Origin: Chloroflexota bacterium
Lineage (GTDB): Bacteria; Chloroflexota; Limnocylindria; QHBO01
NCBI GenBank assembly: GCA_013816405.1
Contig: JACDEL010000025.1
Span: forward strand, 1 to 35,148
Direction of reading: 5' to 3'
DNA length: 35,148 nucleotides
Shown: one piece after another, positions 2,446-34,797 of the stretch
Layout: each line of letters starts with the position of its first letter
Numbering within the stretch: position 1 is the stretch's first letter
The notes under the pieces: model-generated
What the model was told of the DNA's origin: nothing
The model's database searches: none
The model's input: the letters and a program-made list of their open reading frames with translations, nothing else
Made by a program: the position numbers and the translations under genes

Positions 2446-2609
2446 GCGCCGCTTGCGCCCACTGACACCTCTCCCAACACGGCGGCAGCGAAGATCATCC
2501 ACGCCCACTGGCATCGGGCTTGCCGGAACACGACACTTGGGAGGATCATCAGAATCCAGTCAGATCCCGCCGGCTACAGGGTACCGATAAGCATGCAGCC
2601 GGCGGTACG

Positions 2610-3344
2610 ATGCCCCAGAATGCTCTGGGGACGACCGTGCCGAGTGACGCCGAGCACATGCCCGAGCCAGCCGATGCTCCCAGCCTGGACCAGGCCGTGG
2701 AGACCTTGACGCGCGCTGTCGACATCCTGCGATCGCTGAGCCTCCACGACGAGGCCCGGGAGGTGGCCGCCGTCGTCGAGCGGCTGGGAGCCGATCGCGC
2801 GGGCATCGGTCACCAACTCTTCCGGCAGGAGGGCGACTATCGCCTGATCCTCTACGAGTCGGATGTCTTCCGGTTGAAGGAGACGCTCGGCTTGGCCTAC
2901 CTCGCCAAGCTGCTCGCCTCCCCGGGCCGAGAGATTCACGTCCTGGAGCTTGTCGGCAGCGACGTCGGCCTCGCTTCAGATGCCGGGCCAGTGCTCGACG
3001 TCGAGGCGCGGCATGCCTATCGCGAGCGGGTCGAGGAGCTCACCGCCGAACTGACTGATGCAGAGCGCGCCAACGACCCGGATCGGGCGGAGCAGCATCG
3101 CGAGGAGCTCGAGCTGCTACGCAGGGAGCTGTCGCGGGGCGAAGGCCTCGGCGGGCGGCACCGTGCGTCGGGATCGACCTCCGAGCGAGCACGGCAGGCG
3201 GCGACGAAGGCGCTGAAGCGCGCACTCGCCCGCATCGCCACCCACAGCCCAGCACTCAGCCGGCACCTGGCCAGCACGGTGCGCACCGGTACGTACTGCC
3301 GATACGACCCCGACCCGAGGGTGCCGATCGTCTGGCGGTTCTAA
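2610..3344 (+). CDS. Stand-alone C-terminal domain of a large ATPase-type regulator family
   Basis: 244 aa from this start. The segment LFRQEGDYRLILYESDVFRLKETLGLAYLAKLLASPGREIHVLELVG, then GPVLDVEARHAYRERVEELTAEL with a charged coiled coil, then RARQAATKALKRALARIATHSPALSRHLASTVRTGTYCRYDPDP is the module usually found at the C-terminus of large ATPase transcriptional regulators in Actinobacteria and Chloroflexota. Here it stands alone behind a short variable N-terminus, without an ATPase domain; its job is unknown. The start is uncertain: in-frame GTG 2637 and ATG 2658 are alternatives. The ATG at 2610 sits in a TACGAT hexamer that could itself be a -10, and it is followed at once by a 7-bp hairpin (CCCCAGA-ATGC-TCTGGGG, 2613-2630). 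Confidence 0.65.
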   Translation: MPQNALGTTVPSDAEHMPEPADAPSLDQAVETLTRAVDILRSLSLHDEAREVAAVVERLGADRAGIGHQLFRQEGDYRLILYESDVFRLKETLGLAYLAKLLASPGREIHVLELVGSDVGLASDAGPVLDVEARHAYRERVEELTAELTDAERANDPDRAEQHREELELLRRELSRGEGLGGRHRASGSTSERARQAATKALKRALARIATHSPALSRHLASTVRTGTYCRYDPDPRVPIVWRF

Positions 3345-3350
3345 CCCGGC

Positions 3351-3413
3351 CGCGACGCCGCTCGTCACGGTCGCGACGCCGTTCGTCACGGTCGTGACGC
3401 CCTCTTTCACGCC
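3351..3413 (+). repeat. Three tandem 21-bp units with palindromes upstream of the peroxiredoxin-kinase gene
   Basis: Units begin at 3351, 3372 and 3393. The first two differ by one base; the third is more diverged. Each junction forms an inverted repeat: CGTCACG-GT-CGTGACG (3384-3399) is perfect, and CGTCACG-GT-CGCGACG (3363-3378) has one mismatch. The 21-bp period is two helical turns, so the palindromes lie on one face of DNA. They lie 23 bp or more before the ATG at 3436, which suggests a cooperative operator; an attenuator-like RNA structure is also possible. Confidence 0.6.
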
Positions 3414-3435
3414 TGAGGGGTGAAGGAGGAGAACC

Positions 3436-5082
3436 ATGGCCATCACGATGCTGCGCGTCGATCCAAACGCTGCCGGTGAGCGATCCCCCATCGGTCCGGA
3501 CGTCGTCGCCGCACTCGAGCGGGCGATCGCCGGGACCGGCCTGGATGCCTCGCTGCGGAATCGGTACTCGGTCGTCTTCGCCTTCCCCGGCATGGGCGTT
3601 GGTCAGCAGTATCCCGAGCTTGCGGGCTGCACGCTCGAGGTCTGCACCTTCATCGATGAGTCCGGCGTGTTCGCGAAGCACGGGATCGCAGTCATCGGTC
3701 TGTCGGGCGAACGGAGTGAGCCACCCGCCGGCTGCCTGGCAATCCCGTTCCCGGTCGGCGTCATCGGGCAGGAGGGGTTCGGCGGGCCGATCGGCTTCGT
3801 CGAGCAGGACGGCCGTCGGTACGCAGAGCGGTCGACGTTCGTGATCTTCCCGGACGGGACCGGCATGCGCATCTCGGGCATCGCCGACATCGTCGCCCAC
3901 GTGCGAACGTGCCTGGACCTGGTTCTGGAGCATCGGCTCGAACGGCTGCGCGAGGCGACGTTTGCCACCGATCTCACGCACCTGCGATCGACCGTACAGC
4001 TCGGCTCGCTGCTGCCGAACGGCGCCGATTCCGTCGCGATCACGCGCGTCGACGTCACGATCCCGCTGGTCGTCAAGATGGCGGCGGCGGACGTCGTGCG
4101 CGAGGAAGCCGGCTACATGCGCCGGATCAACATGCTCCTCGAGCGTGCCGGGCGCCCGCGCCTGTTTCCGGCGGTCGTCGCGATCAACGCCGACGAGGAC
4201 CCGGCCTGGTACCTGATGGAGGCCGCCGACCCCGTCTCGCTCGACCGCGTACTCTTCGCTGATGCGGCTCGGACGGTGGTGGACAGGGCACGACAGCCAC
4301 TGCTCAGGGCCGGGATCGACGGCCTATCCAACCTGTACGAGCTGACGTTCCGCCGCGAGGTGGCGCCGGTGGCGCGCTATCACTATCGCGACCGGTTCGC
4401 GGTCATTCCCAGCCGGGCGGATACGCGGCTCACGCACCAACTGCTCGTCGGCGGCGGAGACCTGGAGCGAATGCTCCAGCGGCCGGTCATGATCGATGGC
4501 TTCGCCTGTCGGTCCTACCGCGACCAGCTTGCCTTCCTCGAGGAGCGCGTCGACGACCTCGCGCAGCCGGTCGGGGTGTATCTCCACGGCGACGTGCACC
4601 TGCCGAACATGCTCATTGCCGGCAACGACTCGATCGTATTCGTCGATCCACGCATCGTGTGGGATGGGAATGACGTCGGGGATCCCGGCTTCGGCGATCC
4701 ACTCTACGACTTCGCCACGCTGCTCCACAGCCTCCACGTCATGTCGGCCATCCTGCATGCCATCGATATCCAGCAGACCGGAGCGCTCCTAACGGTCGAG
4801 GCCACCAATGGCAGGCTCGAGCTTCGCTCGCGCTCGCTGCGGATCCACGAAAACCCGGTGGTCGAGTGGTTCCGCGCCACCGTCGCCGATCGTCTGCCGG
4901 CCGACATCATCGGCGCCAACTGGGAGGCGCGCCTGCACGTGGGGACGGCCAACGCCCTCCTCGGCTGGCTGAAGTACGCCCGCTCCGTTCAGACCCGCGA
5001 GGCCTGGCTAGCCATCTTTGCGTCGGTGCTCTACCACCTCGAGGTCGGACGCCGGCTGCTCACCCGAAAGGAGATCTCATGA
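3436..5082 (+). CDS. Peroxiredoxin-like / APH-type phosphotransferase fusion protein
   Basis: 548 aa with two domains. Residues about 20-165 resemble a Bcp/AhpC-like peroxiredoxin: VVFAFPG, then GCTLEVCTFIDE with Cys65 and Cys70 in the place of the Bcp CTxxxC pair, IAVIGLSGE, and STFVIFPDG. Residues about 170-548 resemble an aminoglycoside/choline-kinase-type phosphotransferase: Lys214 in LVVKMA for ATP, the catalytic loop HGDVHLPNML (384-393) and the metal-binding Asp404 in VFVDPR. A strong Shine-Dalgarno (AAGGAGG) fixes the ATG. The stop overlaps the next ATG (ATGA), so the two genes are coupled. Kinase substrate unknown; a redox-gated small-molecule or antibiotic kinase is an inference. 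Family assignment is by motif only. I do not know this fusion as a characterised protein. Confidence 0.75.
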   Translation: MAITMLRVDPNAAGERSPIGPDVVAALERAIAGTGLDASLRNRYSVVFAFPGMGVGQQYPELAGCTLEVCTFIDESGVFAKHGIAVIGLSGERSEPPAGCLAIPFPVGVIGQEGFGGPIGFVEQDGRRYAERSTFVIFPDGTGMRISGIADIVAHVRTCLDLVLEHRLERLREATFATDLTHLRSTVQLGSLLPNGADSVAITRVDVTIPLVVKMAAADVVREEAGYMRRINMLLERAGRPRLFPAVVAINADEDPAWYLMEAADPVSLDRVLFADAARTVVDRARQPLLRAGIDGLSNLYELTFRREVAPVARYHYRDRFAVIPSRADTRLTHQLLVGGGDLERMLQRPVMIDGFACRSYRDQLAFLEERVDDLAQPVGVYLHGDVHLPNMLIAGNDSIVFVDPRIVWDGNDVGDPGFGDPLYDFATLLHSLHVMSAILHAIDIQQTGALLTVEATNGRLELRSRSLRIHENPVVEWFRATVADRLPADIIGANWEARLHVGTANALLGWLKYARSVQTREAWLAIFASVLYHLEVGRRLLTRKEIS

Positions 5083-5564
5083 CCGCCTCGAGTGCCCCCA
5101 CCACCACCGCTGTCCGACCGTCCATCTTCTCGTACGTCGCACGGCCGATCCGCTTCCTGGAGCTGTGGCAGCCCGGCGCCTGGCGACTGAAGCTGTACGG
5201 GATCGCCTACGGCCGCGCCGCTCCGCGTCCCGAGCTGGTCGACGCCGCCAAGACGCTCGCGCTTGAGGTCCTGCCAGCTGATCCCGGGTACGGCGTGGGC
5301 TTCATCGGCGCACACGACGCGCGCGGCGGCTGCTACGCGTTCGTCGACTGGTGGGCGAACGAGAACGAGCTGCACCACAAGAGCTTCCTCGGGCCGTCGC
5401 CCGACGAGCTGCGCCCGGCAGGCCCTAACGACTCAGTCGCCTGCGTCTGGGACCTGACGGTGATCGACTTCGAGCGACGGGCGTGGCACGACCTCGTCGT
5501 CAAGCAAGCCGACGCGCCGAACGTGGAAGCCTATCTCGCGCAACGGCTCGAAGACACGATCTAA
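5079..5564 (+). CDS. Conserved protein of unknown function coupled to the peroxiredoxin-kinase
   Basis: 161 aa, cytosolic, no signal peptide or membrane segment. Visible features are an N-terminal RPIRFLELWQPGAWRLKLYGIAYGR block, GYGVGFIGAHDARGGCYAFVDWWANENELHHKSF, and VCAWDLTVI-like VACVWDLTVIDFERRAWHDLVV. I recognise this as a recurring uncharacterised family but know no function for it. The ATG overlaps the stop of the fusion gene as ATGA, so the proteins are made together and may work together. The many Trp and His residues could line a small-molecule pocket, but nothing proves that. Confidence 0.8.
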   Translation: MTASSAPTTTAVRPSIFSYVARPIRFLELWQPGAWRLKLYGIAYGRAAPRPELVDAAKTLALEVLPADPGYGVGFIGAHDARGGCYAFVDWWANENELHHKSFLGPSPDELRPAGPNDSVACVWDLTVIDFERRAWHDLVVKQADAPNVEAYLAQRLEDTI

Positions 5565-5622
5565 CAGGCGTTCTTGGTGATTCCCAAACGAGGGACAAGC
5601 CGCAGCTGAGGAGGGTCGGGCA

Positions 5623-6459
5623 GTGGCAGCCGTTGAGACAGGAGCGGGCGTCGGGACGGTGGTCGCGCTGTGGCGTTACCCGGTGAAGTCGATGATGGGC
5701 GAGGAACTGAACGCGGCAGAGTTGACGGAGCGGGGGGTCCACGGCGACCGTGCCTATGCGCTTCTCGACGCCGAAAGCGGCAAGGTGGCGAGCGCGAAGA
5801 ACCCCCGCAAGTGGCTGACCCTGTTCGACCATCGCGCCAGCTTCGTGGAACCGCCGAAGAAGGACAACGCGATGCCGCCGGTCCGCATCACGCTGCCCGA
5901 CGGCAGCATCCTCACCAGTGACGAGCCTGACGTGCACCACCGACTATCGGCAGAGTTGGGCCGAGAAGTGACGTTGACGGCCGCCGCGCCGAGCGAGCCT
6001 GAGCTTGAGGAGTACTGGCCGAACATTGAAGGCCTGGCTCACAACGACCTCGTCACCGATGAGGCGATGCCGGAAGGAACCTTCTTCGACGTGTCGGTCC
6101 TCCATATCCTGACGACGGCCACCCTCAACCGGCTCCGCGAGCTCTACCCGCAAGGGCGCTTTGAGCCGCGCCGCTTCCGGCCGAACATCATCATCGATCC
6201 GAGCCCGGCTGACGGGTTTGCCGAGAACGACTGGATCGGAAAGACGCTGAGCATCGGGGTCGAAGTTCGGTTGCAGGTTACCGGTGGCTGCCAGCGCTGC
6301 GTGATGACGACGCTCCCCCAAGCTGACCTTCCCAAGGATCCCGGGATCCTTCGAGCGGCGGCCCAGTACAACGATGTGCATGTCGGCGTGTACGCGAAAG
6401 TGACGCACGGCGGCAGAGTGCAGCGGGGCGACCGCCTTGGACTGGGAGTCTCGATGTAG
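5623..6459 (+). CDS. MOSC domain protein (molybdenum cofactor/sulfur-carrier type)
   Basis: 278 aa. An N-terminal MOSC beta-barrel (VVALWRYPVKSMMGEEL, then GVHGDRAYALLDAESGKVASAKNPRKW) is followed by the MOSC domain, with RRFRPNIIID, the family Cys in GGCQRCVMTTLPQ, and AQYNDVHVGVYAKV. Such proteins handle sulfur or bind molybdenum cofactor, for example in mARC-type N-oxide reductases and the Moco sulfurase C-terminus. The start is GTG with GAGGAGGG about 8 nt upstream. It follows the unknown gene by 58 bp and may share its transcript. No partner reductase is adjacent, so the substrate stays open. Confidence 0.85.
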   Translation: MAAVETGAGVGTVVALWRYPVKSMMGEELNAAELTERGVHGDRAYALLDAESGKVASAKNPRKWLTLFDHRASFVEPPKKDNAMPPVRITLPDGSILTSDEPDVHHRLSAELGREVTLTAAAPSEPELEEYWPNIEGLAHNDLVTDEAMPEGTFFDVSVLHILTTATLNRLRELYPQGRFEPRRFRPNIIIDPSPADGFAENDWIGKTLSIGVEVRLQVTGGCQRCVMTTLPQADLPKDPGILRAAAQYNDVHVGVYAKVTHGGRVQRGDRLGLGVSM

Positions 6460-6568: not shown

Positions 6569-6707
6569 GGCCCGATCCGAACGTGGATCGGGCCCATTTG
6601 TTCTATGTTGGTACCGCATACCGGATGCTGGTCGGATCGGCCCATGCGTCCCAACCTGGTTCAGAAACGACTCCGTGGGAGGCATGGGACAGCTCGCATA
6701 AGGGTTC
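6569..6707 (-). repeat. Repeat family copy A (candidate structured RNA or 3'-UTR element)
   Basis: On the minus strand the element starts AACCCTTATGCGA, runs through TCTGAACC and CCGATCCGACC, reaches the box GGTATGCGGTACCA, and after 14 nt enters the terminator hairpin. CCCATGC and GCATGGG arms can pair inside it. Copies B and C share these blocks. It follows the MBL gene by 50 bp, so it may be transcribed as that gene's 3' end. Confidence 0.7.
6570..6600. terminator. Bidirectional terminator between convergent MOSC and MBL genes
   Basis: Perfect 10-bp stem GGCCCGATCC / GGATCGGGCC (6570-6579 and 6586-6595), 6-nt loop, a T-rich stretch on the plus side and CTTTC on the minus side. It is also the 3' end of repeat copy A. 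Confidence 0.8.
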
Positions 6708-7563: not shown

Positions 7564-7766
7564 GGGCCTCCTTCGTGCGACCGAGGGACGGTGGTTCGGG
7601 GCACATGCGGGGTGCTCCGATTCTCCGTCCGCCCGGCCTACAGCGCGCCAGCCTACGCCAATTTCTCAGGCGGCGGCCAGAAGGGACTGTACACGTCGCT
7701 CCGAATCGGGTCCCCCCTGCGGAGGAGAATCCTCGCGCGGCGCTGGTGGCGGACGAGACGCGGGCG

Positions 7767-7772
7767 TATGCT
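7767..7772 (+). promoter_or_regulatory. -10 hexamer TATGCT of the cyclase/NTPase gene
   Basis: TATGCT lies 9 nt before the ATG at 7782, placing transcription start at or next to the start codon. No convincing Shine-Dalgarno is present. This supports the start chosen. Confidence 0.45.
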
Positions 7773-7781
7773 TCTCCGGCT

Positions 7782-10319
7782 ATGGGTCGTCCCGACCTAC
7801 CATCCGGCACCGTCACCTTCCTCTTCACCGATGTCGAAGGCTCGACGAGATTGCTGCACGAGGTCGGCGAGGCGGCCTACGCCGATGCGTTGTCTGAGCA
7901 CCGCCGCATCCTGCGCGACGCGATCGCGCGCCACGGCGGGATAGAGGTAGACACCGAGGGCGACGCGATCTTCGCTGCGTTCACGACTGCCCTCGGTGCG
8001 CTCGTCGCCGCCCGCGATGCACAGGCAGGACTGGAGCCGACCGCGGTCCGAGTCCGCATGGGCCTGCATACCGGCACGCCGCTGCGCACCGACGAGGGCT
8101 ACGTCGGGCTGGACGTTCACCGCGCAGCGCGGATCGCCGCCGCCGGTCACGGAGGCCAAGTGCTCATCTCGGCGACCACTGCGGCGTTGTTGAACAGTGG
8201 AATCGATGACCATCCGCTCACCGATCTGGGCGAGCACCGACTCAAGGATCTCACCGCCGCCGAGCGGCTCTACCAGCTCGGCGCCGAGAAGTATCCGCCG
8301 CTCAAGAGCCTGTCACCCTCAAACCTGCCCGAGCCTGTAGGCCCGCTGATCGGGCGAAGCGCCGAGTTGCTCGAGATCGGCGAGCTGCTGCGAGATTCAG
8401 CGGCCCGGCTGGTCACGCTCGTCGGTCCTGGCGGCATCGGCAAGACCAGACTCGCGCTCGAGGCGGCTGCCGCGGCGGCGAGCCGCTTCCCAAATGGCCG
8501 TTGGTGGGTGCCGCTGGCGTCCGTGCGCGATCCGGCGCTGGTATCGGGGCTCATCGGTCAGGCCCTGGGTCTGGCGGAAGAGGCGGGACCAGCCGCCATC
8601 AGCCAGCACCTCAGGGACCGGCGCGTTTTGCTCATCGTGGATAACGCCGAGCACCTACTGCCGGCTCTGGCCGAGCTGGTGGCCGAACTCCTGCCCACGG
8701 GCGGCGGGTCGTCGGCGCTGGTGACGAGCCGCGAGCCGCTTTATCTGGAAGCCGAGCGCCTCGTCCGGGTTCCGGTCCTGAGCGAGACCGATGCTGAACG
8801 GCTCCTGGTCACGCGCGCCGCCGCGCTTGGGGTGGCTGTGCCGCCGTCAGACGCGCTCACCACCCTCGTGCGCCGTCTCGATCGGCTGCCGTTGGCCCTC
8901 CAGCTGGCGGCTGCGCGGCTGCCGATTCTTTCCGTGGAGCAGGTGCTCGAGCGCCTCTCGCAGCGGCTCGACCTGTTCGCCGGTGCGCGCGACGCGGACC
9001 CGCGGCAGCGGACACTGCGGGCCACGATGGAGTGGAGCCACGAGCTTCTCTCGGAGCCCGAACGCACCCTCTTTCGGCGCATGTCCGTCTTCGCCAGCGG
9101 CTGCACGCTGGAAGCCGCCGAGGCGGTCTGCGACGCGAAGATCGACCTCCTCCAGGCGCTCGTTGAGCGCTCGCTGATCGAGCGACACAACGAGGCGGAC
9201 TCGGCGCCGCGCTTCGCGATGCTCGAATCGATCAGCCAGTTCGCGGTCGAGCGCCTCGCCGAGTCCGGGGAGGAGTCGGAGACCCGGTTGGGTCACGCCG
9301 CATGGGTCCGCGACCTCGCCGAGCGGGTCGACGAGCGGCTGCGAGCCGGCGAGCCAGAGGAACGCTGGGTCGCGCTGCTCAACCCTGAGCTGGATAACCT
9401 GCGCGCCGCGATCGACTTCGGCTTCGGGGGTGGCGACGCACAGCTCGTCCGGGCGATCGCCGCGGCCTTGCCGACCTTCTGGGTCATGCACGGGCGCTCC
9501 GCTGAGGGCCGCGCGTGGCTGGAGCGGGCGCTCCAGCTCGACCCGACCGAGGACGAGACGCGACGTCGCCTCTTGGGCGGGCTTGCCATTCTCGCCTACC
9601 TACAGGGCGACTACGCGGCGTCTACCACCGCGGCCGATGCGGCCGCCGATCTCGCCACTCGGCTGGGCCCGGCCGTCGGACGCTACGCCGGGCTGCGAGA
9701 TCGGGCGCGTGCAGCGCTGATGCGCGACGACTTCGTCGCCGCCGAGCCACTATTCGAGGAAGCCCTGGCCGCCGCTCGGGAGGACGACAACGGGATCGGC
9801 ATGTCGTCCTGCCGGCTCAGCCTGGCGAACATCGCGAATCGGACCGGGCGTCACGCGCGGGCCGAGGCGCTGCTGGGCGAGAACCTGCCCTTCGTGCGCA
9901 GCCGGGGCCAGGCGCGCTGCGAGGCGACCAGCCTGGTGGCGCTCGCCGAGACCTTTACCTACCTCGACCGGCCGGCTGCGGCAGTGGAACATGCGCTGGC
10001 CGCCGCCGAGGTAGCGCCGCAGGCCGCCGACCCCCTGCTGCTGATTGAGAATCTGCGCTGGTACGCGGTCGCCGCCGCCCGCCTTGGGGAGGCCGAGCGT
10101 ACGGCCCGCATCCTTGGCGCCTGCGAACAGGCGGAGGCCGAGATGGATGCCGCGCTCGAGCCGCACGAGCAGGCCGTTCGGGAGGACCTGGTCTCAGCGC
10201 TTCGGCGAGCACTGACGGATGCCGGCCTGCAGGCAGAGCGTACCTCTGGCCGCAGTCTCGGCCTGGCCGCGGCGACCGATCTCATGCGCGCACCAATCGT
10301 CGCACGAGAGTCCGCCTGA
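7782..10319 (+). CDS. Class III nucleotidyl cyclase / NTPase / TPR signalling protein
   Basis: 845 aa. Residues 8-165 form a class III adenylate/guanylate cyclase domain: TFLFTDVEGST (Asp17) and DTEGDAIFAAF (Asp61) supply the two metal-binding aspartates, followed by VRMGLHTG and VHRAARIAAAGHGGQVLIS. In the last motif the transition-state Asn is His but the Arg is kept, as in this subfamily. Residues about 188-500 are an AP-ATPase/NB-ARC-like domain with Walker A GPGGIGKT (215-222), Walker B VLLIVDNAEH and the LPLALQLAAARL motif. The rest is TPR-like helical repeats. Such proteins are thought to be cytosolic sensors or regulators; there is no C-terminal LuxR HTH. The ATG at 7782 is chosen for the domain boundary and the -10 at 7767. 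Confidence 0.9.
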   Translation: MGRPDLPSGTVTFLFTDVEGSTRLLHEVGEAAYADALSEHRRILRDAIARHGGIEVDTEGDAIFAAFTTALGALVAARDAQAGLEPTAVRVRMGLHTGTPLRTDEGYVGLDVHRAARIAAAGHGGQVLISATTAALLNSGIDDHPLTDLGEHRLKDLTAAERLYQLGAEKYPPLKSLSPSNLPEPVGPLIGRSAELLEIGELLRDSAARLVTLVGPGGIGKTRLALEAAAAAASRFPNGRWWVPLASVRDPALVSGLIGQALGLAEEAGPAAISQHLRDRRVLLIVDNAEHLLPALAELVAELLPTGGGSSALVTSREPLYLEAERLVRVPVLSETDAERLLVTRAAALGVAVPPSDALTTLVRRLDRLPLALQLAAARLPILSVEQVLERLSQRLDLFAGARDADPRQRTLRATMEWSHELLSEPERTLFRRMSVFASGCTLEAAEAVCDAKIDLLQALVERSLIERHNEADSAPRFAMLESISQFAVERLAESGEESETRLGHAAWVRDLAERVDERLRAGEPEERWVALLNPELDNLRAAIDFGFGGGDAQLVRAIAAALPTFWVMHGRSAEGRAWLERALQLDPTEDETRRRLLGGLAILAYLQGDYAASTTAADAAADLATRLGPAVGRYAGLRDRARAALMRDDFVAAEPLFEEALAAAREDDNGIGMSSCRLSLANIANRTGRHARAEALLGENLPFVRSRGQARCEATSLVALAETFTYLDRPAAAVEHALAAAEVAPQAADPLLLIENLRWYAVAAARLGEAERTARILGACEQAEAEMDAALEPHEQAVREDLVSALRRALTDAGLQAERTSGRSLGLAAATDLMRAPIVARESA

Positions 10320-10939: not shown

Positions 10940-11016
10940 GGGCGGCTAGCTCAGCTGGTTAGAGCACTTGCTTGACATGCAAGAGGTCACTGGTTCGAGT
11001 CCAGTGTCGCCCACCA
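10940..11016 (+). tRNA. tRNA-Val (anticodon GAC)
   Basis: Complete cloverleaf: acceptor GGGCGGC pairs with GTCGCCC (one G-U), D-arm GCTC/GAGC, anticodon arm CTTGC-TTGACAT-GCAAG with anticodon GAC, T-arm ACTGG-TTCGAGT-CCAGT, discriminator A and an encoded CCA. Its 3' part, from the anticodon stem on, is repeated exactly at 18109-18159, so it is the likely integration site of the island behind it. Confidence 0.97.
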
Positions 11017-17909: not shown

Positions 17910-18108
17910 CGGGTCGTCCCCTTCCATTGCTGCTCAAGCTCAGCGTCATCACGAGAGCGGCGGACCCGCGACCCACCATCGCAGCCGACCGGGTCGTGCC
18001 TCGGTGGATGCTAGGGGAGGATCGCCGGGAGCCGCCATTGGCATGACCGTATAACTGACGCGGTTTCGCTCGGCCCTCCACGCTCGTAGCACAGCGCTCA
18101 GCCGGAAC

Positions 18109-18159
18109 TGCTTGACATGCAAGAGGTCACTGGTTCGAGTCCAGTGTCGCCCACCAACC
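18109..18159 (+). repeat. Right att site (attR): 3' part of tRNA-Val
   Basis: Exact 51-bp copy of 10969-11019. The preceding bases do not form a tRNA 5' half, so this is not a working tRNA gene but the displaced 3' end left by integration. Confidence 0.8.
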
Positions 18160-21306: not shown

Positions 21307-23979
21307 ATGCCCGAGCCGCTCGAGACGTATCGGTCCAAGCGCGACTTCTCGCGAACGCCCGAGCCCGAGCCCGGGTCAATCGGGGAGGGGAGCGGGCGCT
21401 TTGTCGTCCAGCGCCATCGGGCCACCCGGCTCCACTACGACCTGCGACTGGAGATTGGCGGCGTCCTCGTCAGCTGGGCCGTGCCGCGCGGACCGACGCT
21501 CGACTCGAAACAGCGGCGCCTGGCGATGCGCACCGAGGACCACCCGATCGAGTATTTCGACTTCGAGGGAACGATTCCGGCCAGGGAATACGGCGCCGGC
21601 GACGTGATCGTGTGGGACTGGGGCACCTTCACCCCCGAAGAGACCGATGATCCGGCGGCGGCGCTGCTCGCCGGCGAGCTCAAGTTCCGGCTGGAGGGCG
21701 AGCGGTTGCGCGGCCGCTACACCATCATCCGGACTGGCGGGAAGCGGGACGCGTACGGCAGGGAGTCCGAGCCCGACCAGTGGCTGCTGATCCACAAGCG
21801 CGATGACGCGGCGGTTGCCGGCTGGGACGCGGAGGAGCATCCGACCAGCGTGAAGACCGGTCGCACCAACGACGAGGTCGTTGCGGGAGTCGAACCACAC
21901 CTGGTTGCGCGGCCTCCGAGCGTGGAGCCGGAGCCAGACCTCGCTGCCGCTCGACCGGCCGCGCTTCCCGATTTCGTGAAGCCGATGCTTGCCACGCTCA
22001 CCGAGGGCGCCTTCGACGATCCGGATTGGCTGTACGAGATCAAGTGGGACGGCTACCGGGTCGAGGCGGTCGTCCATCCGAATGCGGTTCGGATCTGGAC
22101 CCGCAACCACATCGACGCCGCAACCTACTTCCCAGACCTGGCCGGCGCAACCGACTGGATCGCCGCGCGCGAGGCCGTGGTGGACGGTGAGGTGGTGGCC
22201 CTTGACCCGGGAGGCCGCCCCGATTTCTCGCTGCTCCAGGACCGGACCGGACTGCGGGGGTTGGACGCCACCGGTCGGCGCTCGTCCGATGGACCAAAGC
22301 TCACCTCCGAGGAACGCAGGGCGATCCCGCTGGCGTACATGGTCTTCGACCTGCTGCACCTCGACGGCAACTCCCTCTTGGACGTGCCGCTCGAGGAGCG
22401 GAAGCGTCTCCTGCATCGGCTCATCCGGCCACATCCGCTGGTGCGTTATGCGGCACACGTGGTCGGGGATGGCGACGCCTTCGTTCGCGCGGCTGCCGAT
22501 CGGGGCCTGGAAGGGGTGGTTGCCAAGCGTCGGGCGAGCCGCTACGAGCCCGGCAAGCGATCGCGCGACTGGCTGAAGATCAAGCTGCGTCGCGAGCAGG
22601 AGCTTGTCGTGGCAGGGTGGCTGCCCGGGAAGGGAAGCCACGCCGACCTCGGATCGCTCATCGTCGCCGTGAACGCCGATGGTCACCTCAGGCACGCGGG
22701 TCAGGTTGGCAGCGGCATCTCGGCGACCATGCGTAAGCAACTCCTGGCCGCCATGGAGCCACTGCGCCGCGATACATCGCCGCTGGATCCTGTGCCCCGG
22801 CTGCCTGCGGCGCGCTGGGTGGAGCCTCGCATCGTGATTCGGGCGGAATTCGCAGAATGGACATCCGATGGATTGTTGCGACAGGCGGCCTTCAAGGGAA
22901 TCGAGGTGGGGAAGGAGCCTGCCGCCGTCGTTCGCGAAGAAGCGATGCCCGCCGCGCGGGTCGTGGCGCGCGCTCCCGGCAGCCGCTCGTCGGCAGCGGC
23001 CCGAGGCAACAGATCAGATCACTTGAACACGGCCGTCCTCGAGGCGACCCCCGCCGAGCTTGCGGCCCTCGATGCCATGGAACGCGACGGTACCTGGCAG
23101 GTTGCGGGCCATGAGGTCCGCCTCACGAACCTGGGCAAGGTGCTCTTCCCGGCGGCGGATGGACATCCCGCCCTCACCAAGCGCGACCTCATTCGGCACT
23201 ACGTGTCGGTAGGCCCGATCCTCGTGCCGCACCTGGCGGGCCGTGGCCTCAACCTCCAGCGCTTCCCGGACGGGATCGGGAAGGCCGGCTTCTGGCAGAA
23301 GGATCTGCCCGGCCACGCACCGAGCTGGATCGCGCGCTGGACCTACACCGGCAGCGAAGGGCCCAAGGACTACGTCGTGGCCGATCGGGTCGCGACGCTC
23401 GCGTGGCTGGGACAGGAGGGTGCGATCGAGCTGCACCCGTGGACCTCGCGCACCAGCGCGCCTGATCGGCCGACCTTCGCATTGATCGACATCGACCCGG
23501 GAACGAGAACGACCTTCGAGGAGATCCTCGTTCTGGCGCGACTGTATCGGACCGCACTCCAGCACCTGGGGGTGATCGGCCTTCCGAAGGTGAGCGGCAA
23601 GCGCGGCGTCCAGATCTGGCTGCCGATCGAGCCCGCCTACACCTTCAAGCAGACACGCGATTGGGTGGAGATGCTGTCGAGGGCGGTGGGGCAGACCGTG
23701 CCGGAGCTCGTGAGCTGGGAATGGTCGAAGCGTGACCGCGCGGGCCGGGCCCGGCTCGACTTCACCCAGAATGCGATCAATCGGACGCTCGTCGCACCCT
23801 ATTCGGCTCGACCAGCGCCGGGAGCTCCCGTCTCTGCGCCGATCACATGGGATGAGCTCGACGATCCCAAGCTCACACCAGACTATTGGACCATTCGCTC
23901 CCTGCCCGAGCGGCTGGCGGCGTTCGGCGACCTGTTCGCCCCTGCCCTCAGCGAGGCACAGAAGCTGCCGTCACTCTGA
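21307..23979 (+). CDS. ligD: Multifunctional DNA ligase D (phosphoesterase-ligase-polymerase)
   Basis: 890 aa; the end-processing and sealing enzyme of bacterial non-homologous end joining. Domain order is phosphoesterase (about 10-190; FVVQRHRATRLHYDLRLEIGG, SWAVPRGP, DHPIEYFDFEGTIP), ATP-dependent ligase (about 220-540; adenylation Lys in YEIKWDGYRVEA, VDGEVVALD, GLEGVVAKR, DWLKIKL), then primase/polymerase (about 590-880; VRLTNLGKVLFP, FPDGIGKAGFWQKDLP, IDIDPG with catalytic aspartates). This is the Pseudomonas-type order; mycobacterial LigD has the polymerase first. Its partner Ku is not in this window and should lie elsewhere. A leaderless start is predicted from TATCGT 6 nt upstream. 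A long-stem terminator follows. Confidence 0.95.
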   Translation: MPEPLETYRSKRDFSRTPEPEPGSIGEGSGRFVVQRHRATRLHYDLRLEIGGVLVSWAVPRGPTLDSKQRRLAMRTEDHPIEYFDFEGTIPAREYGAGDVIVWDWGTFTPEETDDPAAALLAGELKFRLEGERLRGRYTIIRTGGKRDAYGRESEPDQWLLIHKRDDAAVAGWDAEEHPTSVKTGRTNDEVVAGVEPHLVARPPSVEPEPDLAAARPAALPDFVKPMLATLTEGAFDDPDWLYEIKWDGYRVEAVVHPNAVRIWTRNHIDAATYFPDLAGATDWIAAREAVVDGEVVALDPGGRPDFSLLQDRTGLRGLDATGRRSSDGPKLTSEERRAIPLAYMVFDLLHLDGNSLLDVPLEERKRLLHRLIRPHPLVRYAAHVVGDGDAFVRAAADRGLEGVVAKRRASRYEPGKRSRDWLKIKLRREQELVVAGWLPGKGSHADLGSLIVAVNADGHLRHAGQVGSGISATMRKQLLAAMEPLRRDTSPLDPVPRLPAARWVEPRIVIRAEFAEWTSDGLLRQAAFKGIEVGKEPAAVVREEAMPAARVVARAPGSRSSAAARGNRSDHLNTAVLEATPAELAALDAMERDGTWQVAGHEVRLTNLGKVLFPAADGHPALTKRDLIRHYVSVGPILVPHLAGRGLNLQRFPDGIGKAGFWQKDLPGHAPSWIARWTYTGSEGPKDYVVADRVATLAWLGQEGAIELHPWTSRTSAPDRPTFALIDIDPGTRTTFEEILVLARLYRTALQHLGVIGLPKVSGKRGVQIWLPIEPAYTFKQTRDWVEMLSRAVGQTVPELVSWEWSKRDRAGRARLDFTQNAINRTLVAPYSARPAPGAPVSAPITWDELDDPKLTPDYWTIRSLPERLAAFGDLFAPALSEAQKLPSL

Positions 23980-32284: not shown

Positions 32285-33847
32285 TCAGCGCACCTTGTCG
32301 GTCACATCGAGGAATGTGTAGATGTCCGACTGGTTGGGCCAGATGTAGTTTCGGTCGGGCAGCAGCGGCAGGTCCTGCCCGAACTCAGCATTGAAGAGGA
32401 CCCGGAACTGGTTGACCGGGGTCATGGTGCTGTAGAAGCCCGCCTCCTCCGGGTCCTTATCCGGCAGGTAAACGGCGTTGAGGATGCCGAACTTCTGCTT
32501 CAGGACCTCGGTTGAAGCGGTGGTCCAGTCGAAGCCACGCTCGTCGCGGCGGTATCCCTTCGGCCACGCGCCCTCGTCGCCAAGCAGCATGATGATCGGG
32601 CGCTCGGCCGCCGGGACGTCGAGGAGCTGATCGACCCAGGCAAGCATCTGCGTATTCGTGTATTTGAGCTGCTCCACGAACTGCTCCTCGTGGGTGAGCT
32701 CCCGCGCCTCCTCGGCGGTGATGAAGCTGCCATCGGGGTGGAAGACGTATGGCTCATGGTTGAGCGCCAGCTGGGTGTGGATGAACTTCGGACCGGCGAG
32801 GCTGGAGGCGCGCCGCAGCGAGCGCAGCTCGTAAAGGGTCTGGTTGTATCTGTTCAGCCGCCAGTCATAGGGTGCCTCCGTGCCGAGCTCCTCGAAGACG
32901 CGCAGGATCGTCGCCCGCTGCAGCACCGCGTCGAACTCCGAGGTCAGCTTGTCGTAGACATAGTTGATCTCGGCTGAGGGGTGCTGGCTCATCGGGCTCC
33001 AGAAGGTGCCGGCGTAGATGAAGCGGTAGCCGAGGCCATCGAGGAACGTCTGCACCTCGAACGGAGAGCTGAGCCCACGGTAGATCGGTCCCCAGTCGTT
33101 GGCCGCCTTCGCCTGCTTTCGGAGATCCGGGCCGTCGAGGTACTCGAGGTTGCGCGCCGATTGAATCGAAGGTGCCGTCTTCAGGTAGTTGGCGGTCGAA
33201 TCCTCGGCGATGTAGAAGCCTCGGTCGCGCAGCGCGTCGAGGAACGGAGAATTGTCGTAGTTGAAGTCAGCCTTGAGGACGCTGTTGGAGGCGTACTCCT
33301 CGAGGACGACCCAGTACACGTCGTGATGCGCAGCGTTCGACGTTTCGCCGGTGGCGGTGACCCCGGACCCGGTGTTGGCCGAGGTTGGCCGGACATTGAA
33401 GACGAATGCCCCGATGATCAGCAGGTTGAAGAGGAGCGCCAGCCCCGTGATCACGTTCAGCGGCAGCACGACGCGATTCGCCAGCGCATGGAAGCGCCAG
33501 ATGAATGACAGGCCGATGACGGCGATCAGCAGCCAGGCAATCAGCAAGACCCATTGTCCGAGGACCATCGTTCCGAGCCAGTCCCATGCCATCCCGTACG
33601 TGAAGAAGAGGACGAGGAGGAGCGTGCTGGCCAAGGCGGCCGCAGCCCACGCCCGGGTGAGAGCGCCGAGGATCCCCATCACGATCAGCGTCGCCACGAT
33701 GCAGATGGCGAGGGGAACAAAGATCTCTTCCGGGGCGATGGCCTCCTGCACGTTCTGGGCGTAGAGGAAGATCACCGGGTAGGCCGCCGCCAGAACCGGA
33801 TAGAGGGGGAGGCCAGGCAGCCGCCGAAGCCACGTCGGGGTGGTCAT
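32285..33847 (-). CDS. Membrane-anchored sulfatase-like (alkaline phosphatase superfamily) protein
   Basis: 520 aa. The N-terminal about 170 residues hold five hydrophobic helices (for example PLYPVLAAAYPVIFLYA, FVPLAICIVATLIVMGILGAL, AALASTLLLVLFFTYGM, WVLLIAWLLIAVIGLSFIW, VITGLALLFNLLIIGAFVFNV). The rest is an extracytoplasmic sulfatase-like domain: HDVYWVVLEEYAS at the place of the metal-site Asp, TANYLKTAPSIQSARNLEYLD at the place of the nucleophile Thr/Ser, and IIMLLGDEGAW in place of the usual DHG. The layout recalls LTA synthase-like phosphoglycerol or phosphoethanolamine transferases, but the metal ligands diverge, so enzyme activity is uncertain. The ATG at 33847 is taken at the start of the first helix. 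Confidence 0.82.
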   Translation of the reverse strand: MTTPTWLRRLPGLPLYPVLAAAYPVIFLYAQNVQEAIAPEEIFVPLAICIVATLIVMGILGALTRAWAAAALASTLLLVLFFTYGMAWDWLGTMVLGQWVLLIAWLLIAVIGLSFIWRFHALANRVVLPLNVITGLALLFNLLIIGAFVFNVRPTSANTGSGVTATGETSNAAHHDVYWVVLEEYASNSVLKADFNYDNSPFLDALRDRGFYIAEDSTANYLKTAPSIQSARNLEYLDGPDLRKQAKAANDWGPIYRGLSSPFEVQTFLDGLGYRFIYAGTFWSPMSQHPSAEINYVYDKLTSEFDAVLQRATILRVFEELGTEAPYDWRLNRYNQTLYELRSLRRASSLAGPKFIHTQLALNHEPYVFHPDGSFITAEEARELTHEEQFVEQLKYTNTQMLAWVDQLLDVPAAERPIIMLLGDEGAWPKGYRRDERGFDWTTASTEVLKQKFGILNAVYLPDKDPEEAGFYSTMTPVNQFRVLFNAEFGQDLPLLPDRNYIWPNQSDIYTFLDVTDKVR

Positions 33848-33909
33848 CGGCTCGGATTCTCGCACGGCGCGTCGTTGACCGTGGCCCGACGATCGGCGAT
33901 GCTGCGGTC

Positions 33910-34797
33910 GTGGTTGTGCCCACCATGGAGCTGAGCTTGCCCGATGGACGGTCGCTGGACGTCTTCCTCGACGGCCCGCCGACCGGTACGCCGCTGGTCT
34001 ATCACATGGGGACACCGTCCGCCGGCGGCCCGACCTTTCCGCCGGTCGTTGATGCCCTGGCGGAGCGCGGCCTCCGGTATGTCAGCTTCTCCCGTCCCGG
34101 CTACGGATCGTCGACGCGGCGGCCGGATCGCAGCGTGGCGGACGTGGTGGACGACACCGCAGCCGTCCTCGACGCCATTGAGGCTGAGCGCTGCCACGTG
34201 ATCGGTTGGTCGGGCGGGGGACCGCACGCCCTCGCCTGCGCAGCTCGGCTGCCGGAGCGGGTGATCAGCGTCGCGACCATCGGCAGCATCGCGCCCTACC
34301 CGGCCGAGGGGCTCGACTGGACCGCGGGGATGGGGGCCGAGAACATCGAGGAGTTTGCAGCGGCGCTGGCCGGCCCTGACGAGCTGATCGCGTTCAAGGA
34401 ACGAGCCGCTCCAGTGTTTCGGGCCGTGACGCCGGACCAGGTTGCGGACGCGTTCGGCGACCTCATCGACGACGTGGATCGCGGGTCCCTGACCGGTGCC
34501 TTCTCGGTGTGGATGGCGGATGTCATGCACGAGGCGCTGCGAATCGGCTACTGGGGCTGGTTCGACGACGACATGGCCTTCACAAAACCATGGGGATTCT
34601 CGCTGGACGAGATTCGCGTGCCCGTCTTCCTGTGGCAGGGGGGCCATGATCGGATGGTGCCCTTCGCCCACGGTGAGTGGCTGGCCGCTCACCTCCCGCA
34701 GGCGCGGGCCCGTCTCTTCCCTGAGCACGGTCACCTGACCCTGGCGGTCGACTCCATCCCTCGCATTGTCGACGAGATGGTGTCCGTGGACCGATGA
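33910..34797 (+). CDS. Alpha/beta hydrolase
   Basis: 295 aa. LVYHMGTPSAGGP is the oxyanion-hole strand region, GWSGGGPHALACAARLPERV carries the nucleophile Ser in GxSxG, GGHDRMVP supplies the Asp and PEHGHLTL the His, so the triad is complete. A cap domain of about 90 residues lies between the nucleophile and the Asp. The reaction (esterase, epoxide hydrolase, peptidase) cannot be told. The start is GTG 33910 or ATG 33925; GATGCT lies 6 nt before the GTG. The stop overlaps the next ATG (ATGA). Confidence 0.88.
   Translation: MVVPTMELSLPDGRSLDVFLDGPPTGTPLVYHMGTPSAGGPTFPPVVDALAERGLRYVSFSRPGYGSSTRRPDRSVADVVDDTAAVLDAIEAERCHVIGWSGGGPHALACAARLPERVISVATIGSIAPYPAEGLDWTAGMGAENIEEFAAALAGPDELIAFKERAAPVFRAVTPDQVADAFGDLIDDVDRGSLTGAFSVWMADVMHEALRIGYWGWFDDDMAFTKPWGFSLDEIRVPVFLWQGGHDRMVPFAHGEWLAAHLPQARARLFPEHGHLTLAVDSIPRIVDEMVSVDR

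What the first reader, a model, noticed from the sequence alone, without database searches (positions are those of the whole stretch)
3436..5082. Peroxiredoxin fused to an APH-type kinase
One 548-aa frame with a strong ribosome-binding site joins a Bcp-like peroxiredoxin domain with a CTxxxC pair (Cys65, Cys70) to a phosphotransferase with intact HGDxHxxN and Asp404. I know of no characterised protein of this make-up. Coupled to it is a protein of unknown function. A kinase switched by peroxide would be a new kind of redox control.
Basis: partly seen in the sequence, partly recalled or inferred. Interest (0 to 1): 0.62.

Follow-up and report, generated by a model that had tools for sequence, protein, structure and literature searches.

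The report
Peroxiredoxin-like domain fused to small-molecule kinase
A bacterium carries one protein that joins a redox-active, peroxiredoxin-like domain to a small-molecule kinase; distant relatives keep the same pair, fused or as neighbouring genes, inside what look like peptide-antibiotic-type pathways, so it is probably an unusual two-step metabolic enzyme rather than a peroxide-switched kinase.

Summary
In detail: 3436-5082 encodes one 548-aa protein with an N-terminal peroxiredoxin-like domain (Cys65, Cys70, Arg132) and a C-terminal APH-type kinase (Lys214, Glu224, HGDxHxxN, Asp404). The fusion is real and recurrent: a same-genus genome, a Thermoleophilaceae MAG and two Vibrio plasmids. 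Both Cys are invariant in all these fusions, and selection is purifying on both halves. The domain nevertheless fails the defining peroxiredoxin pattern P-x3-[TS]-x2-C (Leu62 sits at the Thr position), so it is Prx-like, not a proven peroxidase.

The peroxide-switched kinase reading has no support. In Agrobacterium plasmids the same kinase subfamily and a stand-alone peroxiredoxin are separate genes of one operon (SidA-type N-monooxygenase, ATP-grasp ligase, epimerase, exporter). In Vibrio the fused gene sits between a haem-oxygenase-like (HDO) oxidase and an ATP-grasp gene. In the window it lies in a four-gene accessory cassette (2520-6459) with a regulator-tail gene, a conserved unknown protein and an mARC/YcbX-like MOSC gene. 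Best reading: a bifunctional small-molecule enzyme (kinase plus thiol-redox step) of specialised metabolism; substrate unknown. The MAG copy is fused to a SARP-type regulator, so a sensory role remains possible.

The parts
2520..3344 (+). Regulator-tail gene (274 aa), first gene of the conserved cassette; resembles the split-off C-terminal part of large AAA/TPR-type regulators
   Evidence: No Pfam family above its cut-off; 77% identical copy in the sister genome; in G446 a 44% relative lies directly behind a TPR-containing regulator-like reading frame (by eye)
3352..3411 (+). Three 21-bp direct repeats (GNGACGCCNNNNNTCACG) just upstream of the Prx-kinase start: operator-like iterons
   Evidence: Three exact copies, no other exact copy in the 35-kb window; TRF period 21; two copies at the same place in the sister genome. 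Function inferred
3436..5082 (+). Prx-like domain / APH-type kinase fusion, 548 aa (the finding)
3493..3930 (+). Prx-like (thioredoxin-fold) domain, residues 20-165; Cys65 3628-3630, Cys70 3643-3645, Arg132 3829-3831; Leu62 where peroxiredoxins have catalytic Thr/Ser
   Evidence: Profile match to AhpC structures 1.6e-5; alignment with stand-alone PrxQ
3988..5079 (+). APH-type kinase domain, residues 185-548; Lys214, Glu224, HGDVHLPN from 4585, Asp404 4645-4647; subfamily signatures GADS, DPR-x2-WD, ANA-x2-GWLKY
   Evidence: Pfam APH 2.2e-7; motifs invariant in six relatives
5079..5564 (+). Conserved unknown protein (161 aa), start overlaps the kinase stop (ATGA); follows the fusion in the sister genome and in the MAG
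   Evidence: no Pfam/NCBIfam family; wider family on other plasmids in unrelated contexts
5623..6459 (+). MOSC_N-MOSC protein of the mARC/YcbX type (reduction of N-oxygenated compounds, by analogy), with conserved Cys in CQRCVMTT
   Evidence: Pfam MOSC 2.9e-17, MOSC_N 3.9e-11; PDB matches only human mARC1 constructs, 1e-9; same position in the sister genome
6569..6594 (+). Terminator-like hairpin (11 pairs) closing the cassette
   Evidence: consensus scan only

Best explanation
The protein is a bifunctional small-molecule enzyme of a rare, mobile accessory pathway. Its APH-type half transfers phosphate from ATP to a hydroxyl (or hydroxylamine) group of a small, probably amino-acid- or peptide-derived compound. 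Its Prx-like half carries a redox-active Cys65/Cys70 pair that performs or supports a thiol-redox step on the same pathway (reduction of an oxidised intermediate, or mopping up oxidant made by a partner oxygenase), without the classical peroxiredoxin active site. Shown: the fusion, its recurrence, conservation of both active-site sets, the gene contexts. Inferred: the substrate class, that both halves act in one pathway, and that the window cassette still does what the Vibrio and Agrobacterium operons suggest.
For: (1) Kinase residues Lys214, Glu224, His384-Gly-Asp386, His388, Asn391, Asp404 invariant in six sequences down to about 30% identity. (2) Cys65, Cys70, Pro51, Arg132 invariant in four aligned fusions and in stand-alone relatives; dN/dS 0.10 for the Prx core and 0.16 for the kinase against the sister genome, so both halves are kept functional. 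(3) Rosetta-stone evidence: in Agrobacterium plasmids pAt1D1478 and pAt15-1187-1-2a1 the kinase (31% identity, tblastn 1e-43) and a stand-alone Prx are genes of one tightly spaced operon, SidA-type N-monooxygenase / kinase / ATP-grasp / Prx / dipeptide epimerase / MFS. (4) In two Vibrio plasmids the fused form (hhalign 9e-31 over 457 columns) is flanked by an HDO-type oxidase (PF14518, 2e-31) and an ATP-grasp protein, behind an MFS transporter; HDO plus ATP-grasp pairs mark small-peptide natural-product clusters (PMC13185094). (5) In the window genus the fusion is one of four genes (2600-6456, 79% DNA identity) shared with the sister genome while the flanks are not, and the last gene is an mARC-like MOSC protein, a family that reduces N-oxygenated compounds (PMC10637980): a third possible N-O-chemistry neighbour.
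Against: The window has no ATP-grasp or N-oxygenase next to the fusion; the only PF14518 protein found in the window's genome lies on another contig. The MAG copy is fused to a SARP/BTAD regulator, which points to regulation. HDO and MOSC families have varied chemistry, so the 'N-O theme' is only an association. Few fused lineages are in hand. No substrate evidence; structure prediction failed.
Confidence: 0.5

Rival explanations
1. Regulatory module: the Prx-like/kinase pair is the sensory or effector part of a transcription regulator, replacing the AAA/LAL ATPase of SARP-LAL regulators, and controls the genes of the cassette.
For: In the MAG one 916-aa frame joins BTAD (8.6e-22), a cyclase-like stretch and Prx-kinase, with a winged-helix Trans_reg_C (1.1e-6) just upstream in another frame. 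SARP-LALs have SARP plus guanylate-cyclase-like plus ATPase parts (PMC10972967). In the window genus the gene before the fusion resembles the tail of large regulators, and 21-bp direct repeats precede the fusion; SARP sites are heptameric direct repeats with 4-15 nt spacers.
Against: No DNA-binding part in the window, Vibrio or Agrobacterium versions; the Vibrio and Agrobacterium contexts are enzymatic. The MAG frame is interrupted between winged helix and BTAD, and a regulator can fuse to the enzyme gene it controls. The repeats were not tested genome-wide.
Confidence: 0.2
2. Peroxide-switched kinase: peroxide oxidises Cys65, a Cys65-Cys70 disulfide forms and turns the kinase on or off.
For: Fusion in several lineages with both Cys and Arg132 invariant.
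Against: The Thr/Ser of P-x3-[TS]-x2-C is absent in all aligned fusions (PMC5719442), which predicts poor peroxide reactivity. In Agrobacterium the kinase is not attached to a Prx. No downstream signalling target is conserved.
Confidence: 0.13
3. The Prx-like half is only a protective or structural appendage: it scavenges oxidant near an oxygenase or holds the kinase, and the kinase is the sole pathway enzyme.
For: HDO and SidA-type oxygenase genes sit beside the pair in Vibrio and Agrobacterium and such oxygenases can leak H2O2 (general knowledge); the catalytic Thr is lost.
Against: Both Cys and Arg132 are kept across great distance and the Prx core evolves at dN/dS 0.10.
Confidence: 0.13
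4. Antibiotic-inactivating APH (resistance) enzyme.
For: APH family score and motifs.
Against: NCBIfam APH(3') score 17 against a cut-off of 205; the closest relatives sit in biosynthesis-like operons; the subfamily has its own signatures.
Confidence: 0.04

Closest known systems
PrxQ/Bcp-type peroxiredoxins (e.g. Deinococcus DR0846, PMC6590489)
   Same: Thioredoxin-fold homology, CTxxxC Cys pair five residues apart, conserved Pro51 and Arg132
   Different: No Thr/Ser at the CP-3 position and a loop seven residues longer between Pro51 and Cys65; fused to a kinase; below Pfam and NCBIfam cut-offs
APH/choline-kinase-like phosphotransferases (PF01636)
   Same: HGDxHxxN, Asp404, Lys214/Glu224, above the Pfam cut-off
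   Different: Own subfamily (GADS, DPR-x2-WD, ANA-x2-GWLKY); fused Prx-like domain; not an aminoglycoside enzyme by curated models; no solved relative better than E about 0.09
Vibrio p1ST2/p319 'hypothetical protein' (WP_235676593.1, WP_043011706.1)
   Same: Same Prx-like/kinase fusion, end to end
   Different: Lies between HDO oxidase and ATP-grasp genes; 27-29% identical
Agrobacterium pAt operon with separate phosphotransferase (WP_306019461.1) and peroxiredoxin (WP_306019459.1)
   Same: Same kinase subfamily and a Prx in one operon
   Different: Two separate proteins; the Prx keeps Thr/Ser residues in its active-site loop; SidA-type oxygenase and dipeptide epimerase are present
HDO plus ATP-grasp peptide pathways (mangotoxin, PMC13185094)
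   Same: HDO oxidase with freestanding amino-acid ligase, as in the Vibrio locus
   Different: The mangotoxin paper names no peroxiredoxin or phosphotransferase; the window locus has neither HDO nor ligase beside the fusion
SARP-LAL regulators (PimR, SanG, FilR; PMC10972967)
   Same: The MAG copy has SARP-type and cyclase-like parts
   Different: LAL ATPase replaced by Prx-kinase; the window copy has no DNA-binding part

Membership tests
Peroxiredoxin | Sequence/fold homology to Prx (thioredoxin fold) | tested here: met
   Profile vs PDB: AhpC 1.6e-5 and almost only Prx hits; the AF2 model was too poor to confirm the fold itself
Peroxiredoxin | Active-site pattern P-x3-[TS]-x2-C (invariant, PMC5719442) | tested here: not met
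   P51-G-M-G-V-G-Q-Q-Y-P-E-L-A-G-C65: 14-residue spacing and no Thr/Ser in the loop; Leu at CP-3 in all four aligned fusions
Peroxiredoxin | Strictly conserved active-site Arg | tested here: met
   Arg132 invariant in all nine aligned domains
PrxQ/Bcp subfamily | Resolving Cys five residues after CP | tested here: met
   Cys65/Cys70 invariant; but PrxQ model only 17.5 bits vs cut-off 260
Peroxiredoxin | Peroxidase activity | not testable with these tools
   Needs an enzyme assay
APH-type phosphotransferase (PF01636) | Family score above curated cut-off | tested here: met
   29.8 bits vs 23.2
APH-type phosphotransferase (PF01636) | HGDxHxxN loop, metal-binding Asp, Lys/Glu pair | tested here: met
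   Invariant in six sequences
Aminoglycoside resistance APH(3') | Curated NCBIfam score | tested here: not met
   17.4 bits vs 205
SARP/SARP-LAL regulator | Winged helix plus BTAD in the protein | tested here: not met
   Absent in window, sister and Vibrio copies; BTAD present only in the MAG copy
HDO/ATP-grasp peptide biosynthesis cluster | HDO or N-oxygenase and ATP-grasp gene next to the fusion | tested here: not met
   Present in Vibrio and in the Agrobacterium operon but not in the window; the window locus is not filed as such a cluster
mARC/YcbX MOSC protein (gene 5623-6459) | MOSC_N plus MOSC with conserved Cys | tested here: met
   molybdenum binding and activity not testable here

The most novel reading that the evidence does not exclude
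A new class of bifunctional redox kinases: a peroxiredoxin fold that has lost its peroxidase Thr and been recruited, with an APH-type kinase, as a catalytic unit for an undescribed step on N-oxygenated or peptide-derived small molecules, spread between phyla as accessory cassettes and, in one lineage, fused to its own pathway regulator.
Probability: 0.3. Interest if true: 0.68.

Novelty: new variant of a known kind. Interest (0 to 1): 0.47.

Why it matters
If the pair is a pathway unit, it marks an uncharacterised biosynthetic logic (oxygenase, ATP-grasp ligase, kinase, Prx-like redox protein) that annotation does not name; the Vibrio copies are called 'hypothetical protein'. The conserved loss of the catalytic Thr with both cysteines kept would show a peroxiredoxin fold doing other chemistry. 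The Agrobacterium operon, with the two activities on separate genes, makes the question directly testable by single-gene deletions and metabolomics.

Tried and rejected
AlphaFold2 of the fusion with two sequences: pLDDT 38, not used. AF2 of the 161-aa protein: pLDDT 60; its Foldseek search gave no match at E <= 0.001. Viral contigs, phages and PADLOC: nothing. Solved structures with the single protein: nothing; kinase profile: best E about 0.09. Class-level hits G1129 and G1127 are ordinary stand-alone PrxQ and G1174 a different kinase. Chance fusion or assembly error rejected (several independent lineages). Aminoglycoside resistance rejected. Literature searches found no described Prx-APH protein. 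The 161-aa family occurs beside unrelated genes (Yersinia isochorismatase fusion, Xenorhabdus MetRS-like/PvdA cluster, Aureibacter), so it was not used to infer function. A short repeat shared with the sister genome outside the cassette turned out to be tRNA-derived.

Full report
What is there. The window carries one open frame at 3436-5082, 548 aa, with a good ribosome-binding site and coding-type codon bias. Residues 20-165 form a Prx-like domain and residues 185-548 an APH-type kinase. Pfam sees the kinase above its cut-off and the Prx half only weakly. A profile from four fused domains matches AhpC structures at 1.6e-5, with almost nothing but peroxiredoxins in the list, so the N-terminal assignment stands.

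Relatives. A same-genus genome has an 81% copy; two less complete genomes of the genus (89% and 76%) lack it. A Thermoleophilaceae MAG, from another phylum, has a 53% copy. Two Vibrio plasmids have a 480-aa copy annotated 'hypothetical protein', which aligns over the whole fusion (hhalign 9e-31). Apart from the two members of the window's genus and the MAG, no fusion was seen in 400 genomes of the window's phylum, 396 of the MAG's phylum, 399 of its class or 177 of the window's class. It is rare and patchy, as expected of an accessory gene moved between lineages. Chromosomes of other phyla could be reached only through one pattern scan that finds close relatives.

Active sites. Across the four aligned fusions Cys65, Cys70, Pro51 and Arg132 are invariant; across six kinases Lys214, Glu224, HGDxHxxN and Asp404 are invariant. 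Both halves are under purifying selection against the sister genome (dN/dS 0.10 Prx core, 0.16 kinase). The Prx half nevertheless misses the Thr/Ser of the invariant peroxiredoxin pattern P-x3-[TS]-x2-C, as defined in PMC5719442: the loop is seven residues longer and Leu stands at CP-3 in all four. I therefore call it Prx-like.

Context elsewhere. In Agrobacterium the kinase subfamily is not fused; it lies in a run of genes with overlapping or nearly touching ends: SidA-type N-monooxygenase, kinase, ATP-grasp ligase, stand-alone peroxiredoxin, dipeptide epimerase, MFS transporter. In Vibrio the fused gene stands between an HDO oxidase (PF14518) and an ATP-grasp protein, after an MFS transporter. 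HDO next to ATP-grasp is a recognised mark of small-peptide pathways (PMC13185094). One gene in some lineages and two operon neighbours in another is classical evidence that the two activities serve one process.

Context in the window. The DNA shared with the sister genome is 2600-6456 and, apart from a tRNA-derived repeat, nothing else in its 19.5 kb: a four-gene cassette of regulator-tail gene, Prx-kinase, 161-aa unknown protein (start overlapping the kinase stop) and MOSC protein, followed by a terminator-like hairpin at 6569-6594. The MOSC protein is of the mARC/YcbX type (only PDB match human mARC1), a family that reduces N-oxygenated compounds (PMC10637980); it is patchy in the family. 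Together with the SidA-type and HDO neighbours this suggests N-O chemistry, but that is an association, not a demonstration.

Regulatory hints. In the MAG the fusion continues upstream in one frame into a cyclase-like stretch and a BTAD domain, with a winged helix just before it in another frame. This is the front half of a SARP-LAL regulator (PMC10972967) with the ATPase replaced by Prx-kinase. In the window genus 21-bp direct repeats, three here and two in the sister genome, lie right before the fusion, with no other exact copy in the window. A sensory role is therefore a serious rival; an alternative is that a pathway regulator fused to the enzyme gene it controls.

Verdict. The peroxide-switch interpretation lacks support. 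The best reading is a bifunctional small-molecule enzyme of accessory, probably specialised, metabolism, at about even odds; what it phosphorylates, and what the cysteines do, remain open.

Noticed in passing
3352-3411: Three 21-bp direct repeats (GNGACGCC-N5-TCACG) between the regulator-tail gene and the Prx-kinase start; two in the sister genome at L018:9530-9567. Spacing resembles SARP operators; regulon not searched.
   Followed up: partly
10940-11013 and about 18076-18130: A full tRNA gene (anticodon GAC by eye, Val) and a second copy of its 3' half including CCA about 7 kb away; a similar partial copy lies in the sister genome (L018:17141-17265). Looks like an att-site footprint of an integrated element; no integrase seen among the genes called there.
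   Followed up: partly
L003:3434-6611: In the Thermoleophilaceae MAG the SARP winged helix and its BTAD lie in different frames (apparent frameshift), then one frame runs through cyclase-like, Prx-like and kinase parts.
   Followed up: partly
5079-5564: The 161-aa family has relatives in Xenorhabdus pXT29 inside a MetRS-like/GNAT/adenylation/PvdA cluster (L037), within a Yersinia protein annotated as isochorismatase (L036), and beside DJ-1 and GNAT genes in Aureibacter (L039); it deserves a family entry of its own.
   Followed up: partly
7575-10319: Large regulator with guanylate-cyclase, NB-ARC/AAA and TPR parts next to the cassette; not shared with the sister genome's stretch.
   Followed up: no
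21307-23979: Single-chain LigD with the order phosphoesterase, ligase, primase-polymerase.
   Followed up: no
32285-34015: 576-aa frame with coding-type bias and no Pfam family at 0.001.
   Followed up: no
L018:13056-14438 and L030:1957-3354: Similar FAD-linked (BBE-type, by eye) oxidoreductases lie near the cassette in the sister genome and near the regulator-tail relative in the MAG; possible further link.
   Followed up: no
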